A stretch of 35,514 nucleotides of DNA from a virus: IMG/VR virus record IMGVR_UViG_3300024265_000144, positions 1 through 35,514 of that record. One strand, written 5' to 3'. The translations under genes were made by a program, and so were the position numbers. The notes under the pieces are model-generated. The model did no database searches and was not told where the DNA came from. It saw only the letters and a list, made by a program, of their open reading frames with translations. This document shows positions 20,957-35,071 of this stretch, piece by piece. Position 1 is the stretch's first letter. Every line of letters starts with the position of its first letter.

Positions 20957-21169
20957 ATGGAAAAGACAATTGAAGAATGGTATCAAGATTTACCGCAATA
21001 TGTGCGTGAAAAAGCAATTAAGAACGCTAGGACTCAAAATATGACTCCTACATTGGGATTAACGGTTGAAGATTTACAGAGTGCGTTAATTTGTGGTTTT
21101 TCATGGGGGAACTCACCAGAAGAACATGACTATTGGCAAGATCAACATAATAAGTTGTTTGGTGATTAA
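20957..21169 (+). CDS. Small hypothetical protein, 70 aa
   Basis: An acidic helical protein (MEKTIEEWYQDLPQYVREKA, then TPTLGLTVEDLQSALICGF) ending with HDYWQDQHNKLFGD. The 'W...LP.y.rekA..n' start is seen in small phage proteins of unknown function. Its last codons overlap the putative -33 box (21158-21161) of the structured RNA locus, so its 3' end also carries control sequence. Confidence 0.6.
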   Translation: MEKTIEEWYQDLPQYVREKAIKNARTQNMTPTLGLTVEDLQSALICGFSWGNSPEEHDYWQDQHNKLFGD

Positions 21170-21188
21170 ATAATTATTCGTATTATTG
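21158..21188 (+). promoter_or_regulatory. Putative promoter of the structured RNA locus
   Basis: TTTG at 21158-21161, a 19-base spacer and TATTATTG at 21181-21188 match the Bacteroidetes -33/-7 consensus at 11 of 12 defined positions. The expected start is near 21193, just before the first stem. Confidence 0.65.
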
Positions 21189-21192
21189 TACC

Positions 21193-21305
21193 GTTAGTTC
21201 TGACGAAAGTCATATTCGACACTAACCAGACATAAGGATATTAGCTTTTGATTAAGCAATTCAATATAGAAGGTTTACGAGGTCGAATACGTAAGCCTTT
21301 TTTTT
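21193..21305 (+). ncRNA. Structured small RNA, about 110 nt, with own promoter and terminator
   Basis: There is no ORF of note. Stem 1: GTTAGT 21193-21198 with ACTAAC 21221-21226. Inside it, TGAC 21201-21204 pairs with GTCA 21209-21212 around a GAAA tetraloop (GNRA). After a mostly unpaired middle (21227-21270) comes a 9-bp terminator stem. A promoter lies upstream and a strong terminator downstream, so it is an independent transcription unit. I do not recognise the class. Confidence 0.65.
21271..21305 (+). terminator. Strong rho-independent terminator
   Basis: AGGTTTACG at 21271-21279 pairs with CGTAAGCCT at 21290-21298 (one G-U), loop of ten bases, followed by a run of T to 21305. Confidence 0.9.
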
Positions 21306-21308
21306 ATG

Positions 21309-21600
21309 GGCGATAATTGAATCTTAGTTATCGCCTATATCACACAGAACTTTCTGGTTACTCATACAGACAACAAGGCTAATAACTTGTACCTAATTTT
21401 GGCTCAGTGAGGGCGTGTTTAAGGAGGTGTATGAGCGATGATAGTAGGAATACTATTCTGTCTTCGTGACAGGCTGATGACGAGAGCGGCTCGATGGTCG
21501 AAGTAAGTCAGGGGTTCGTTAGTTGTCACTTCTATTATGTAGTAGTGGCTTATTAGCGAAGCTGTTTCTAAGAACAACTAATAATCAAAGTAAGTAACCA
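21309..21600 (+). ncRNA. Large folded RNA region, class unknown
   Basis: A gene-free stretch dense in complementary arms, listed in order. GGCGATAA 21309-21316 with TTATCGCC 21328-21335. A closing helix TGGTTACT 21355-21362 with AGTAACCA 21593-21600. ACAAG 21373-21377 with CTTGT 21386-21390. GCTCA 21402-21406 with TGAGC 21432-21436. ATAGTA/TACTAT 21441-21456 around a GGAA (GNRA) loop. CTGTC/GACAG 21458-21472. CTGA 21474-21477 with TCAG 21508-21511 enclosing CGAG/CTCG 21481-21493. A three-way junction GTTAGTTGT 21518-21526 with ACAACTAAT 21574-21582, holding hairpins at 21527-21547 and 21549-21572. So many compact helices argue for a functional RNA. The pairs were found by eye, with no energy calculation. 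No promoter of its own is clear, so it may come from read-through. Confidence 0.6.
21431..21469 (+). other. Possible 12-codon ORF behind a perfect Shine-Dalgarno
   Basis: AAGGAGGTGT at 21421-21430 directly precedes ATG at 21431, which opens MSDDSRNTILSS and a TGA. A full AGGAGG is out of place in a genome whose other starts are A-rich. The spacing is short (about three bases) and the site lies in an RNA fold, so it may be structural rather than translated. Confidence 0.25.
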
Positions 21601-21636
21601 TTATAGTAAGTAAGTAGTTAATTAATAATATAAGTT

Positions 21637-21825
21637 ATGGAGTGGATAAGTATAGAAGACAGATTGCCGGAGTTTGGCACGGACGTATTGGTGTTTGACG
21701 AGGTGCCTAATATGGTATTATCGGCCATATTGAACGATGGTGTTTGGGTTGATACTTTTGATGAATTTGAGTTAGAGACTGTGACTCATTGGTCCGAATT
21801 ACCAGAACCACCAAAAACGAAGTAA
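21637..21825 (+). CDS. DUF551-type protein, 62 aa
   Basis: Begins MEWISIEDRLPEFGTDVLVF and ends THWSELPEPPKTK. The 'W.si.drLPe.g..Vlv' start and 'THW.pLPePP' end are the hallmarks of the DUF551 family, small proteins found throughout phages and prophages with no known role. Length is typical. It is the first gene after the RNA region and is tightly followed by the replication genes. Confidence 0.85.
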   Translation: MEWISIEDRLPEFGTDVLVFDEVPNMVLSAILNDGVWVDTFDEFELETVTHWSELPEPPKTK

Positions 21826-21827
21826 GC

Positions 21828-22460
21828 ATGAAAAGTAAATACACAGTAATACCAGATAAGATCTTAACTGATATTCACGAAGTACAGACACTAGGATTAA
21901 TAGTAATCTTATTATCCGGTAAGTATGATGATATAGAGAAGGAACGGCTTTCGTCGACTTTAGGAATGAGTAAAACGGCTTTCACGAAGTCCTGGAAGCA
22001 ACTAACCGATTTAGGGTATATCGTCGAGTCTAACGAAGGCTACCAAGTTTTCGATACACCAGACCCATTATACAACCATACGAACAGCACGCAGGACTTA
22101 TTCAACGAAGAACAACCAACTGAACAGATTGCTATTGTAAAAGACAATAGTCAAAACGATTTAAAAGAAGAATCTTTCAATAGGTTTTGGGACTTGTACG
22201 GAAAAAAGGGTACTAGAAAGAAGGCTTTATCTAAATGGATGAAACTGTCCAAACCACAAATCGATAAGTGTTTTGAGTTGGTAGGGCCTTACATTCTGTC
22301 CACTCCGGATAGACAATACCGTAAAGGATGTGAGTCATGGTTACACAATGAATGTTGGAATGACGAAGTTGATTTGCCGAAGGTTGACAAACGAACCGAA
22401 AGCCTAGGCAAAGGGTATAACCATATAATGGACCAAGTACGTAAAGCCGAAGAATCATGA
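21828..22460 (+). CDS. Replication initiation/replisome organiser protein, 210 aa
   Basis: The start at 21828 (MKSKYTVIPDKILTDIHEVQ) is preferred over an upstream Met inside the DUF551 gene. The N-terminal ~80 residues form a winged-helix domain (RLSSTLGMSKTAFTKSWKQL, then TDLGYIVESNEGYQV). The C-terminal ~80 residues have the 'F..FWdlYgkK..rkkAl.kWmkL' pattern followed by RQYRKGCESWLHNECWNDE, typical of phage O/DnaD-like organisers. These bind the origin and load the helicase, whose gene overlaps by four bases. The phage origin may lie in or near this gene, but I see no clear iterons. Confidence 0.75.
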   Translation: MKSKYTVIPDKILTDIHEVQTLGLIVILLSGKYDDIEKERLSSTLGMSKTAFTKSWKQLTDLGYIVESNEGYQVFDTPDPLYNHTNSTQDLFNEEQPTEQIAIVKDNSQNDLKEESFNRFWDLYGKKGTRKKALSKWMKLSKPQIDKCFELVGPYILSTPDRQYRKGCESWLHNECWNDEVDLPKVDKRTESLGKGYNHIMDQVRKAEES

Positions 22461-23377
22461 TATTAAAAAAGGGACATAGTTCAAAATACTTGCGAGACTA
22501 TAAGGACGGTAAGATACCAATGGGCTTAGGCTTAGGTTGTGATCTGGATAAGAATTTAGTTTGGAAAGATTCACAGTTAAACATAATTCTAGGTCATGAC
22601 AATGTTGGTAAAACCTATTTTATAGAATGGTACTTCTTAGCACTCGCCACTATACACGGAATGACGTTCACTTTGTTTATGGATGAGAATCATGCCGGGA
22701 AAGTATTCAGGGATTTAATTCAGATGTTAGCAGGCAAAGAGTTTAAGAAGATCGAAGACGATGAACTGGAATATTACGAAGCTATAATACATAGACACTT
22801 CAAGGTAGTTGATAATTCAAAAAGGTATAGCCCGGAAGAACTTTTGGAGTTGTTTAAAAAATCGAATACAGACAATTACTTAATTGACCCATACAATGCA
22901 CTTAAAATGTCAATGACATACACGACTAATTATGAAGTACTGAATGAGTTCAAGATGTTCACCAAACAAACGAAGAAGACTATTTACATTAATACTCATC
23001 CAGCTACGGCAAGCGGTAGACGATCAGCAGGAACGTATAACCAAGATCACCAATTCGCAGGACACATAATGCCACCGGTTAAGGCCGACATTGAAGGCGG
23101 TAAACCCTTCGCTAACAAAGCAGATGATTTTATATTGATACATAGATTACTCAAGCACCCGGATATGTGGAAGTACACAATGTTAGAGGTCGACAAGATC
23201 AAAGATATGGACACAGGAGGCCGTCCAACTGTTATGGATTTACCTGTACTTTTGGATTATAACTTCGGCTTAGGCTTTAAAGTAAACGGTAAGGATGTGA
23301 TCAAACGAACACGAATGCCTGTAAAACAAATTAAATCAGTTATTGACTTTTCTTCTGAAGATGAAAGGGGATTCTAA
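22457..23377 (+). CDS. RecA/DnaB-fold replicative ATPase (helicase), 306 aa
   Basis: Walker A is GHDNVGKT at residues 46-53 (preceded by LNIIL). Walker B is YLIDPYN around residue 144, and a sensor-like YINTHPATA lies near 177-185. This is the RecA/DnaB ATPase core (AAA_25 type). The N-terminal DnaB domain and a primase are missing, so it is a short, ATPase-only helicase. Coupled (ATGA) to the replisome organiser, it probably unwinds phage DNA while host primase and polymerase do synthesis. A RepA-like hexameric helicase is the alternative. Confidence 0.8.
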   Translation: MILKKGHSSKYLRDYKDGKIPMGLGLGCDLDKNLVWKDSQLNIILGHDNVGKTYFIEWYFLALATIHGMTFTLFMDENHAGKVFRDLIQMLAGKEFKKIEDDELEYYEAIIHRHFKVVDNSKRYSPEELLELFKKSNTDNYLIDPYNALKMSMTYTTNYEVLNEFKMFTKQTKKTIYINTHPATASGRRSAGTYNQDHQFAGHIMPPVKADIEGGKPFANKADDFILIHRLLKHPDMWKYTMLEVDKIKDMDTGGRPTVMDLPVLLDYNFGLGFKVNGKDVIKRTRMPVKQIKSVIDFSSEDERGF

Positions 23378-29613: not shown

Positions 29614-30363
29614 ATGAGACACGGCAGTTTATTTACAGGTATAGGAGGAAATGACCTAGCAGCAGAATGGATGGGATGGGATAATATATTCCAAGTTGAG
29701 AAAGACATTGCTTGCCAAAAATTATTAAAAAAACGATTCCCAAATACAGAACTACATGGAGACATCAAAGAATTTAAACCGGAACAAGGATCTGTTGATA
29801 TTATCACAGGTGGATTCCCTTGCCAACCATTTAGTCAAGCCGGAAAGCGAAGAAGCAAAGAAGATGACCGTTACCTCTGGCCGGAAATGTTACGAGTTAT
29901 TCAAGAAGCAAAGCCAAAGTTCGTTGTTGCTGAAAACGTTACTAACATCGACGGGATGGCACTCAAAGAGGTGCTTAATGACTTGGAAGACGAAGGTTAT
30001 GAAACGCTCCCACCGCTTGAAATTGAAGCTGCAAGTGTCGGTGCGTTCCACAGAAGAAATAGAGTTTGGATCATCGCCATTAAAGAAGACCCACTCGATA
30101 CCAACACCAACAGCATCGGATCACATAGAGAGGGTGTCGACCAGCAAGGAAGTGTTGAATTTCAACACGAACAAATCAGTCTCCCTGGATCGTTGGTTTC
30201 GCCATCGATACAACAGGGAGTTGACCCCAGAGTTTTCAGAAACTCTAATGGGTTATCCAGCCGGGTGGACAGACTTAAACAAATAGGAAATGCAATATGT
30301 CCTCAGATAGCCTTTGAGATTTTTAAAGCTATAGAGTGTACACAAAACCCTTCCAAAAATTGA
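29614..30363 (+). CDS. C5 cytosine DNA methyltransferase (Dcm-type), 249 aa
   Basis: Motif I is SLFTGIGG (residues 5-12), motif IV GGFPCQPFS with the catalytic Cys70, motif VI ENV (107-109), motif VIII HRRNRVW (146-152) and motifs IX/X RVDRLKQIGNAICPQ (217-231). These show a complete catalytic core that moves a methyl group from S-adenosylmethionine to cytosine C5. The protein is short for the family, with a target recognition part of only about 65 residues (152-217). No restriction partner is nearby, so it is an orphan enzyme, probably protecting phage DNA. A long second frame overlaps most of the gene. Confidence 0.9.
   Translation: MRHGSLFTGIGGNDLAAEWMGWDNIFQVEKDIACQKLLKKRFPNTELHGDIKEFKPEQGSVDIITGGFPCQPFSQAGKRRSKEDDRYLWPEMLRVIQEAKPKFVVAENVTNIDGMALKEVLNDLEDEGYETLPPLEIEAASVGAFHRRNRVWIIAIKEDPLDTNTNSIGSHREGVDQQGSVEFQHEQISLPGSLVSPSIQQGVDPRVFRNSNGLSSRVDRLKQIGNAICPQIAFEIFKAIECTQNPSKN
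29756..30286 (+). CDS. Overlapping +1-frame ORF inside the methyltransferase gene, 176 aa
   Basis: The frame lies +1 to the methyltransferase and is open for 176 codons. Its residues 39-80 (VTSGRKCYELFKKQSQSSLL, then TGWHSKRCLMTWKTKVMKRS) resemble phage proteins often annotated as DNA methylase or associated ('SGrkClELy....LgsLvk.LL.Ss.W.S....LTWK.k.Tks..l'). So do SIPTPTASDHIE (115-125) and ELTPEFSETLMGYPAGWTDL (155-174). Much of this could be a systematic shadow of the conserved methyltransferase motifs, since the alternative frame of such a gene tends to look alike. No good start signal is seen. Real translation is uncertain. Confidence 0.35.
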   Translation: METSKNLNRNKDLLILSQVDSLANHLVKPESEEAKKMTVTSGRKCYELFKKQSQSSLLLKTLLTSTGWHSKRCLMTWKTKVMKRSHRLKLKLQVSVRSTEEIEFGSSPLKKTHSIPTPTASDHIERVSTSKEVLNFNTNKSVSLDRWFRHRYNRELTPEFSETLMGYPAGWTDLNK

Positions 30364-30367
30364 CATA

Positions 30368-30544
30368 ATGGATATAGAAGAATTTAAAAAGCAATACGAA
30401 GAGAATAACCCTGCACCAAAATGGAATAAGAAAGAATGTGGTGAGGGTTGTAATTGCATTGACATTGCAGAATTTAATAATGGAGGTGAGCCAGTGAAAA
30501 ACTATCCTTGCAAAAGTCCACATACACCATTTGATAAAGATTAA
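30368..30544 (+). CDS. Small cysteine-containing protein, 58 aa
   Basis: ATG at 30368 opens MDIEEFKKQYEENNPAPKWN and continues with KKECGEGCNCIDIAEF and NYPCKSPHTP. Four cysteines (C24, C28, C30, C48) could bind a metal. It sits just after the methyltransferase gene and ends with TAAACGTTCGG, a gene-end motif copy that forms a small hairpin. Confidence 0.5.
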   Translation: MDIEEFKKQYEENNPAPKWNKKECGEGCNCIDIAEFNNGGEPVKNYPCKSPHTPFDKD

Positions 30545-31699: not shown

Positions 31700-32260
31700 A
31701 TGGAAGACTGGATAACGAAAATAGCAAACAAACATGACTACTGGGTAAGGATAATTAACTCTTATGGCGAGTCGTTATATGCTGAAGACATTGTTCAAGA
31801 ACTGTATATAAGATTATATAAGTACGCCACAGAGGATAAAGTTTTAATTGATGGTGAGGTAAATTACAGTTACGTTTCCTTCGTATTACGCAATCTATTC
31901 TATGACTACTGCAAGAAAAAGAAACAGGTTGAGCTAGTACGTATTGGTGAAGGGTATAATACCCCTGCAAACAAAGAGTATTCATATATGGAGCAAACAC
32001 AGGCCGACGAAGCTATATTAAGAATAAACGATAAGATAAACAACCACATTAAAAAATGGCATTGGTACGACGGTCATCTATACGACTTACACATAAACAA
32101 AGGAATGTCCATGCGTTCAATCTCACGAGGCGCTGGTATAAGCCTTAAGAATATATGTGAAACCATGAAGCGATGCAGAAAGGATATGGAACAATTCATG
32201 TCCGACGAAGTACAACAAGACATTGACAATTATAAAGAGGGTAACTACGAATTAGTATAA
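31700..32260 (+). CDS. Sigma-70-like transcription factor, 186 aa
   Basis: Residues 20-75 show a sigma region 2 pattern (LYAEDIVQELYIRLYKYATE, then YVSFVLRNLFYDYCKKKKQ), including the DIVQE.Y.RLYKY core. Residues 125-165 contain a region 4-like helix-turn-helix (DLHINKGMSMRSISRGAGIS, then LKNICETMKRCRKDM). It likely binds host core RNA polymerase and directs it to phage promoters, perhaps the late set. It lies just before the terminase genes. It starts five bases after the lipoprotein stop. Confidence 0.65.
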   Translation: MEDWITKIANKHDYWVRIINSYGESLYAEDIVQELYIRLYKYATEDKVLIDGEVNYSYVSFVLRNLFYDYCKKKKQVELVRIGEGYNTPANKEYSYMEQTQADEAILRINDKINNHIKKWHWYDGHLYDLHINKGMSMRSISRGAGISLKNICETMKRCRKDMEQFMSDEVQQDIDNYKEGNYELV

Positions 32261-33416: not shown

Positions 33417-33809
33417 ATGGAATCAAACGAATTACGGATTGGAAATTACATTAAGCATACTGAATCAAATAGAGTTGGTGCGGTTACCGGCTTACAAGAA
33501 AACATAATTGATTGTACGAATGGATTTGATGGCTCATTATATTCTGAACCAATCCCATTAACCGAAGAATGGTTATTGAAGTTTGGATTTGAAAAGAAAA
33601 CTGAATTATTAGGATTTGGCTCTGTAGAGTCTACATTCTACGAATTGAACAACGACAGAATTTATTTGCTTCGCAAAGGGTTTGAATATGAACGAACACC
33701 AACCTTGAAATCAAACGAAAGATTTAATTTATGTAAGGTATATAATTATGTACACCAACTACAAAACTTATACTTCGCATTGAAAGGCGAAGAACTAGAA
33801 TGCAGATAA
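33417..33809 (+). CDS. Conserved Bacteroidetes phage protein, 130 aa
   Basis: Opens SNELRIGNYI and has PLTEEWLLKFGFEKKTELLG in the middle and YVHQLQNLYFALKGEELE at the end. The order 'LRiGNyv...pI.LTEEWL.kFGF....vHqLQNLYFAltGeEL' is frequent in small proteins from Bacteroidetes phages and prophages, often annotated hypothetical. It overlaps the large terminase start by ten bases. Confidence 0.75.
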   Translation: MESNELRIGNYIKHTESNRVGAVTGLQENIIDCTNGFDGSLYSEPIPLTEEWLLKFGFEKKTELLGFGSVESTFYELNNDRIYLLRKGFEYERTPTLKSNERFNLCKVYNYVHQLQNLYFALKGEELECR

Positions 33810-35071
33810 CTAAGCCACATCTAACAAGCTACCAAAAGAAGATCCTGTTCTCGAAGGCACGGTTCACGATAACTGAAGCCGGCACGAAGACGGGTAAAAC
33901 ACACTCGCACATCCTTTGGCTGTTTGGTAAGGCTCACGAATACGAAGTAGCATTAGGATTTAATTACTGGTGGGTAGCTCCCGTATATTCTCAATCAAAG
34001 ATTGCCTTCAACCGATTAAGATTAAACCTAGTAAGATACGGAGTCTACAGATTCAACGAAACATCATTAATAATCTATTGTCCTAACGGAGCAGAGATAC
34101 ACTTTAAGACAGCAGACAAACCAGATAACTTATACGGGGAAGATGTACACGCAGCAGTGTTCGACGAAGCAAGCAGAGCCAAAGAACATGCATGGACAGC
34201 ACTATACTCCACACTAGCAGCAACCAAAGCACCATGTAAACTAATAGGAAACTTCAAAGGCATATCGAATTGGGTCCACAAGCTTAAGGAGTTAATGAAG
34301 AACGATCCTAACTGGGATTACTTCAAAGTAACATGTTGGGATGCGGTCGACGAAGGCATACTTGAACTGGACATTGTACTACAAGCACAGAAAACAATGC
34401 ACCCTAGAATGTTCAGTGAACTATGGGAAGCAGAACCAACGGAAGACGAAGGCCAATTAATAAACAACGAAAGCATAGTAAAGCTATTCAGTAACACTCA
34501 CATAGAAGAAGGGGCCAAATACATCACAGCGGATATCGCACGTATGGGAAGGGACAAGACAGTTATCTATCTATGGGACGGCCTAAGAGTTATCGAAGTT
34601 ATTGAGATGGATGTGTCGAAGGTTACGGAGTCAGCAGCAGCAATAAAGAAGCTACAGGATGAACACAATGTAAATACCAGTAATATCATAGTCGACGAAG
34701 ACGGAGTAGGAGGAGGAGTAGTAGACATACTTGGATGCATAGGATTCGTAAACAACTCAACACCGATCAAGATCGAAGGGAAGAAGGAAAACTTCGTTAA
34801 CCTCAAAGTACAATGTTACTGGAAGCTTGCCCAGGTAATAAACAGGAACGAAATCTATGTTGACTGTGATCCGACTCAAGGACGAATGTTAACGGAGGAA
34901 CTAGAGTGGGTAAGGCTTCCGAAGGAGATAGACGCACAGAAGATTAACATATTAAGCAAAGATGAGATTAAGAAGAACATAGGACGTTCACCTGATTACT
35001 CAGATGCTTTAATGATGCGTATGTACTTTATGGTTGACCCACATCGAGGGCAGTTGTATGTGTACATGTAA
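33800..35071 (+). CDS. terL: Terminase large subunit, 423 aa
   Basis: The N-terminal ATPase has Walker A GTKTGKT (residues 28-34) and Walker B AAVFDEA (118-124, with D122 and E123). The C-terminal RNase H-like nuclease has ADIARMGRDKT (D245), VDEDGVGGG (D299/D301) and PDYSDALMM (D399, D402). These are the hallmarks of the motor that pumps DNA into the prohead and cuts it. Length is normal. The TerL group (cos or pac type) cannot be told from this sequence. Confidence 0.95.
   Translation: MQITKPHLTSYQKKILFSKARFTITEAGTKTGKTHSHILWLFGKAHEYEVALGFNYWWVAPVYSQSKIAFNRLRLNLVRYGVYRFNETSLIIYCPNGAEIHFKTADKPDNLYGEDVHAAVFDEASRAKEHAWTALYSTLAATKAPCKLIGNFKGISNWVHKLKELMKNDPNWDYFKVTCWDAVDEGILELDIVLQAQKTMHPRMFSELWEAEPTEDEGQLINNESIVKLFSNTHIEEGAKYITADIARMGRDKTVIYLWDGLRVIEVIEMDVSKVTESAAAIKKLQDEHNVNTSNIIVDEDGVGGGVVDILGCIGFVNNSTPIKIEGKKENFVNLKVQCYWKLAQVINRNEIYVDCDPTQGRMLTEELEWVRLPKEIDAQKINILSKDEIKKNIGRSPDYSDALMMRMYFMVDPHRGQLYVYM

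What the first reader, a model, noticed from the sequence alone, without database searches (positions are those of the whole stretch)
21309..21600. Large, strongly folded non-coding RNA of unknown class in a phage
A gene-free stretch of about 290 bases holds many separate complementary helices. They include a long-range closing helix (21355-21362 with 21593-21600), a GGAA-capped stem, a UUCG-like loop stem and a three-way junction. Loop TTCG of the 21458-21472 hairpin can also pair with CGAA at 21499-21502, a possible pseudoknot. This density is far beyond chance intergenic DNA. The pairs are seen in the sequence. That the RNA is functional and new is inference.
Basis: partly seen in the sequence, partly recalled or inferred. 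Interest (0 to 1): 0.82.

Follow-up and report, generated by a model that had tools for sequence, protein, structure and literature searches.

The report
Pseudoknotted RNA gene in a phage
A phage that probably infects Flavobacteriia carries a previously undescribed folded RNA, supported by matching base changes in four otherwise dissimilar phages; most of it lies just upstream of the stretch that was flagged, and its job is not yet known.

Summary
There is a real, conserved structured RNA here, but it is mostly not the one flagged. The flagged helices exist, yet 21355-21600 folds only modestly better than shuffled DNA (z about -2; rank about 23 of 576 stretches in the window) and has no sequence or structure match in three related loci. 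The strong signal starts 116 bases upstream. A domain of about 113 nt (21193-21305) has promoter-like bases before it, two hairpins, an intrinsic terminator (8 bp plus U8), and an 8-bp pseudoknot joining a bulge of hairpin 1 to the terminator loop. Four phages that share few other genes carry it: all 123 scored pair cells are standard pairs and 13 of 31 pairs change on both sides, 6 of them in the pseudoknot. A helix (P6, 21305-21339) follows directly in all four, capped by 3 nt here, by tRNA-like domains in two phages, by a long hairpin in one. Then come 290-365 gene-free nt without sequence conservation; most of the flagged region is this part. No Rfam family matches. Best reading: an RNA gene with a short terminated and a long read-through form, the pseudoknot coupling hairpin 1 to termination. 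That mechanism is inference.

The parts
21158..21188 (+). Promoter-like bases: TTTG (21158-21161), 19 nt, TATTATTG (21181-21188), 4 nt before P1
   Evidence: TA-box-like bases at the same 4-nt distance before P1 in all four loci (TATTATTG, TAAATTTG, TACCTTCG, TACCTTCG); Bacteroidota consensus from PMC7366714; the pattern alone is not rarer than chance
21193..21226 (+). Hairpin 1: P1 (21193-21198/21221-21226), P2 with GAAA loop (21201-21204/21209-21212), 8-nt bulge 21213-21220
   Evidence: paired in all four phages; 2 pairs of P2 change on both sides; P1 nearly invariant
21213..21289 (+). Pseudoknot: bulge 21213-21220 with terminator loop 21282-21289 (8 bp)
   Evidence: 8/8 pairs in each of four phages, 6 of 8 pairs change on both sides
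21238..21267 (+). Hairpin 2: P3 (21238-21242/21263-21267, invariant) and P4 (21244-21247/21254-21257)
   Evidence: P3 never varies, so its pairing is unproven by covariation
21272..21305 (+). P5 with U8: intrinsic-terminator hairpin (21272-21279/21290-21297, U-run 21298-21305)
   Evidence: 8 bp in all four, 5 pairs change on both sides, U7-U8 kept
21305..21339 (+). P6: 16-bp hairpin with 3-nt loop that starts at the end of the U-run; the only part of the flagged interval with comparative support
   Evidence: helix at the same place in all four, 11-12 of 12 pairs in three of them; tRNA-like cap in L056, T-arm-bearing cap in L057, long hairpin in L114
21340..21636 (+). 3' part (most of the flagged region): gene-free, not conserved in sequence
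21420..21429 (+). TAAGGAGGTG, a 10-nt complement of the usual 16S rRNA 3' end; meaning unknown
   Evidence: only copy in the window; listed gene starts of this phage lack Shine-Dalgarno sequences
21637..21825 (+). Next gene: DUF551 protein, followed by replication initiator (21828-22460) and primase/helicase-like (22457-23377) genes

Best explanation
This is a phage RNA gene of a new family. Shown: a 5' domain (21193-21305) in which an 8-nt bulge of hairpin 1 pairs with the loop of an intrinsic-terminator hairpin, and a helix P6 directly behind the U-run, kept by compensatory changes in four otherwise dissimilar phages. Inferred: transcription starts near 21193 from a Bacteroidota-type promoter and yields a short form (about 113 nt, stopped at the U-run) and a long read-through form (up to about 440-570 nt: P6, sometimes a tRNA-like domain, and a fast-changing 3' part). 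Hairpin 1 is made first, so its bulge can capture the terminator loop as it emerges; this couples the state of hairpin 1 (perhaps bound by a protein or ligand at the conserved unpaired UUC, GAAA, CCAGA) to termination and so to the short/long ratio. Because flanking genes differ in all four phages, it is more likely a stand-alone RNA or an operon-level gate than a switch for one particular gene.
For: All 123 pair cells standard, 13 pairs changed on both sides, 0 of 500 shuffles as good, slid partners pair in only 30-39%. Homologues found independently by blastn, pattern and model. P5 plus U7-U8 in all four. P6 directly behind the U-run in all four. Block of 467-585 nt gene-free in each. Unlike neighbouring genes. 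TA-box-like bases at constant distance.
Against: Only four sequences. No expression data. The promoter pattern is no rarer than chance. No alternative (antiterminator) pairing was identified; terminator and pseudoknot look compatible, so the pseudoknot may simply stabilise the fold. The 3' part is not conserved.
Confidence: 0.4

Rival explanations
1. A plain trans-acting small RNA of about 113 nt with a compact pseudoknotted fold, ended by its intrinsic terminator; what lies behind the U-run is not part of it.
For: Promoter-like bases and terminator at the right distance, unlike flanking genes, conserved unpaired bases. Start site plus intrinsic terminator is the typical anatomy of intergenic small RNAs in Bacteroides (PMC7366714).
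Against: Does not explain why P6 follows the U-run at once in all four phages, nor the 290-365 gene-free nt kept behind it.
Confidence: 0.28
2. An antitermination element in the nascent RNA, acting like the put sites of phage HK022: hairpins 1 and 2 modify RNA polymerase so that it reads through this and later terminators of the operon.
For: Two stem-loops directly before a terminator, in one-directional phage operons, independent of which gene follows.
Against: No sequence test of membership was possible; the specific pairing with the terminator loop is not a put feature (own knowledge). In three of the four phages the following genes are small unknowns.
Confidence: 0.14
3. A member-like analogue of ornate large phage RNAs (GOLLD, ROOL): one long RNA of 410-580 nt that folds as a scaffold and sometimes carries a tRNA piece.
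For: Phage-borne, one conserved end and one variable end, tRNA-like domain in a variable hairpin in two of four phages; [quoted passage not shown]
Against: No Rfam match to GOLLD or ROOL; 3' part poorly folded and not conserved; an internal U8 behind a strong hairpin is unlikely to be read through fully; no tRNA islands.
Confidence: 0.09
4. The block is a replication origin or transcript-primed start (ColE1-like), placed before the replication genes.
For: In the window it lies just before the replication initiator and helicase genes.
Against: In the other three phages it is not next to replication genes; no shift of G+C skew at the site (20-23.5 kb only).
Confidence: 0.04
5. The flagged helices at 21355-21600 themselves form a functional RNA fold as drawn by the first reader.
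For: z = -2.2; slightly G+C-richer than its surroundings.
Against: No counterpart by sequence or structure model in the three loci that share the upstream domain; those 3' parts fold little better than shuffles.
Confidence: 0.05

Closest known systems
Intergenic small RNAs of Bacteroidota with a sigma-ABfr promoter and intrinsic terminator (PMC7366714)
   Same: Promoter-like bases, about 113 nt, intrinsic terminator, stands between unrelated genes
   Different: Phage-borne; bulge-to-terminator-loop pseudoknot; followed at once by a conserved helix, at times tRNA-like
Terminator-containing riboswitches and attenuators
   Same: Folded leader with conserved unpaired bases followed by an intrinsic terminator
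   Different: No common downstream gene in the four phages; no alternative antiterminator pairing identified; no Rfam match
put RNAs of phage HK022 (own knowledge)
   Same: Two stem-loops in a phage operon ahead of a terminator
   Different: Pairing with the terminator loop; host group; no sequence comparison made
GOLLD (RF02032) and ROOL RNAs
   Same: Phage RNAs of unknown function, conserved part plus variable part, tRNAs sometimes in the GOLLD linker (PMC12286853)
   Different: Shorter, conserved part at the 5' end, no Rfam match, internal terminator, no tRNA island

Membership tests
Any Rfam family (release 15) | Score above the family's gathering threshold | tested here: not met
   No match in the window; permissive search of 21150-21700 gives only chance-level hits, best E = 1.2; same blocks of the relatives give only tRNA in L056 and a sub-threshold Betaproteobacteria-1 match in L057
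GOLLD / ROOL ornate RNAs | Match to the Rfam covariance model | tested here: not met
   not listed even at E up to 5-10
GOLLD / ROOL ornate RNAs | Forms a homo-oligomeric cage | not testable with these tools
   needs cryo-EM or sizing
New covarying RNA family (this work) | Compensatory changes beyond chance across homologues | tested here: met
   13 of 31 pairs change on both sides, 100% paired, 0 of 500 shuffles as good; four sequences only
tRNA (P6 cap of L056) | Cloverleaf with readable anticodon | tested here: not met
   Rfam tRNA 36 bits, E = 6.7e-6, but ARAGORN calls tRNA-???; the window has no tRNA-like part
Bacteroidota small RNA with own promoter and terminator | -7 TAnnTTTG and -33 TTTG upstream of the start | tested here: inconclusive
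   TATTATTG and TTTG at 19 nt here; constant 4-nt distance to P1 in four loci, but the pattern is not rarer than chance
Bacteroidota small RNA with own promoter and terminator | Intrinsic terminator | tested here: met
   8-bp stem plus U7-U8 in all four
Riboswitch | Linked to a consistent class of downstream genes | tested here: not met
   Downstream genes differ
HK022 put-type antitermination RNA | Suppresses termination by the same polymerase in cis | not testable with these tools
   needs a read-through reporter

The most novel reading that the evidence does not exclude
A new phage regulatory RNA in which an upstream hairpin captures the loop of the terminator hairpin by a pseudoknot during transcription and so decides between a short RNA and a long RNA that can carry an exchangeable tRNA-like domain: a terminator-gating device that does not depend on the downstream gene.
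Probability: 0.3. Interest if true: 0.82.

Novelty: new variant of a known kind. Interest (0 to 1): 0.6.

Why it matters
Phages of Flavobacteriia are common in water, yet I found no described non-coding RNA of theirs in the library searched. This one is small, its fold is supported by covariation, and it makes a concrete prediction: a loop-bulge pseudoknot that touches a terminator. If that pseudoknot controls termination, it would be a new way for RNA to gate transcription. The swap of a plain hairpin for a tRNA-like domain at the same spot bears on why phage RNAs pick up tRNA pieces.

Tried and rejected
Rfam at gathering and permissive thresholds: nothing usable for the RNA. Blastn against isolated phages and plasmids: none (only a 24-nt tRNA-Pro match). 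Exact 19-mer from the flagged RNA in IMG/VR: none. Search via the protein just upstream: none. Genome-contig scans: one random Clostridium coding match. Model R2 in 46 phage records including 9 isolates: only the known loci; weak extra hits look like ordinary terminators. Single-sequence model of the flagged fold against the three relatives: no match. Group I/II intron, RNase P, tmRNA and hammerhead readings considered from sequence motifs: no Rfam or ARAGORN support. Intergenic regions of other primase relatives (L003, L005, L006, L007, L020): no shared structure seen. A switch between two pairings of 21518-21526 inside the flagged RNA: the alternative costs about 5 kcal/mol and has no comparative support. 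Bacteroidota genomes could not be searched with the model, as no centre genome of that phylum was at hand. One sliding fold scan timed out and was repeated.

Full report
WHAT THE WINDOW IS. The window is a 35.5-kb virus record with nearly all genes on the + strand. Its terminase is nearest to Flavobacterium phage 11b and to Cellulophaga and Polaribacter phages, and the listed gene starts lack Shine-Dalgarno sequences, as is usual for Bacteroidota. The host is probably in Flavobacteriia (inference). The flagged stretch lies between a 70-aa protein of unknown function and a DUF551 / replication-initiator / primase-helicase group.

THE OBSERVATION. The gap 21170-21636 (467 nt) is the only large gene-free stretch on the + strand. 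Their density is not far beyond chance: 21309-21600 has z = -2.8, but 21355-21600 alone has z = -2.2 and ranks about 23rd of 576 stretches of the same window; 21336-21636 has z = -1.1. The best-folded stretch of the whole window is 21188-21433 (z = -5.2), about half of which is outside the flagged interval.

HOMOLOGUES. Blastn of the block against whole records of related viruses found one homologue, G001 (IMGVR_UViG_3300043167_000007; L056), 75% identical but only over 21174-21320. A pattern from the shared bases found a second, L057 (IMGVR_UViG_3300037521_000133). A second pattern plus a covariance model built on the first three found a further one, L100/L114 (IMGVR_UViG_3300024517_000029, 79 bits, E = 1.4e-13). 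A third pattern gave no more, nor did a model search of 46 phage records including nine isolates. The four phages share few other genes, and the genes beside the RNA differ in each.

THE CONSERVED DOMAIN (21193-21305). P1 with an inner GAAA hairpin P2; an 8-nt bulge on the 3' side; hairpin P3/P4; then a terminator hairpin P5 with U8. The bulge 21213-21220 (TATTCGAC) is the exact complement of 21282-21289 (GTCGAATA) in the terminator loop. In G001 the two are TCTCTGAA/TTCAGAGA, in L057 CGTCTCAC/GTGAGACG, in L114 GCTTCGAA/TTCGAAGC: 8 of 8 pairs every time. Counted on the four-sequence alignment (31 pairs, 123 cells), every cell is a standard pair. 13 pairs change on both sides (6 in the pseudoknot, 5 in P5, 2 in P2), with 20 double-changed cells against 7.9 +/- 1.9 in column shuffles (0 of 500); partners slid by 1-3 columns pair in 30-39% of cells. 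The alignment was made by MAFFT without the structure; the structure was read from the first three sequences, and L114 came as an independent test of the pseudoknot, since model R1 did not contain it. P1 and P3 are nearly invariant and so say little. G-U pairs occur on the + strand in every sequence, which points to the + strand as the transcript.

PROMOTER. In all four loci TA-box-like bases stand 4 nt before P1 (TATTATTG, TAAATTTG, TACCTTCG, TACCTTCG). They resemble the -7 consensus TAnnTTTG of Bacteroidota, and the window and L057 have TTTG 19 nt further up; the consensus is quoted in PMC7366714. The pattern by itself is not rarer than chance, so the promoter is a suggestion.

BEHIND THE U-RUN. 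A helix, P6, begins at the end of the U-run in all four. In the window it is a 16-bp hairpin with a 3-nt loop (21305-21339). In G001 it carries a tRNA-like domain (Rfam tRNA 36 bits, E = 6.7e-6, no sensible anticodon). In L057 it carries a domain with a canonical T-arm (read by eye; no Rfam or ARAGORN tRNA). In L114 it is a long hairpin. P6 pairs 12/12, 11/12 and 12/12 in the first three, with changes on both sides (a hand count with one bulged base left out in L057). So the structured unit appears to continue past the terminator.

THE FLAGGED 3' PART. After P6 come 290-365 gene-free nt in each phage. Their sequences are not significantly alike, a structure model of the window's fold finds none of the others, and they fold little or no better than shuffles. 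What is kept is the length and the absence of genes: total block 467, 570, 585, 580 nt. This can be a fast-changing part of the RNA, a leader or a spacer.

MECHANISM. Shown: fold, pseudoknot, terminator anatomy, P6, unlike neighbours. Inferred: a short RNA stopped at the U-run and a long read-through RNA, the pseudoknot coupling hairpin 1 to the terminator. Order of synthesis allows the coupling: the bulge is made before the terminator loop and can capture it as it emerges. The loop has 10 nt, 8 of them in the pseudoknot, so terminator and pseudoknot can coexist; whether the pseudoknot helps or hinders termination cannot be told from sequence. Conserved unpaired bases (UUC, GAAA, CCAGA) suggest a bound partner. 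A plain small RNA is the nearest rival, an antitermination element the next, and an ornate tRNA-carrying RNA the most exotic.

COMPARISON. No Rfam family matches, so by that test it is not GOLLD, ROOL or a known riboswitch. It works most like a terminator-containing leader or small RNA. The tRNA-like exchange recalls GOLLD linkers (PMC12286853), without membership.

LIMITS. Four sequences; exact-pattern scans miss diverged members; no metagenome or Bacteroidota genome scan with the model was possible; no expression data.

Noticed in passing
window 20095, 23739, 27234, 35170 (bases before the start codons): Near-identical leaders, about AACTTAAAAA(A)TATACAT, stand right before four separate start codons; perhaps a repeated phage promoter or translation leader.
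   Followed up: no
window 21420-21429: TAAGGAGGTG, a perfect 10-nt complement of the usual 16S rRNA 3' end, lies in the flagged RNA although the listed genes of this phage lack Shine-Dalgarno sequences.
   Followed up: partly
L057 2240-2329: The 3' part in this relative has a sub-threshold match to the Rfam family Betaproteobacteria-1 (24.0 bits, gathering 49.4, E = 0.019).
   Followed up: no
L056 2053-2139: tRNA-like gene with intact acceptor, D and T arms but no sensible anticodon and a rebuilt anticodon/variable region.
   Followed up: partly
window 31700-32257: ORF with a weak match to a phage sigma-factor family (phrog_1740, E = 8e-7).
   Followed up: no
window 33580-33825 (+) and 30136-30381 (+): Two further stretches fold better than shuffles (z = -3.5 and -3.3 with 20 shuffles each); both overlap coding sequence.
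   Followed up: no
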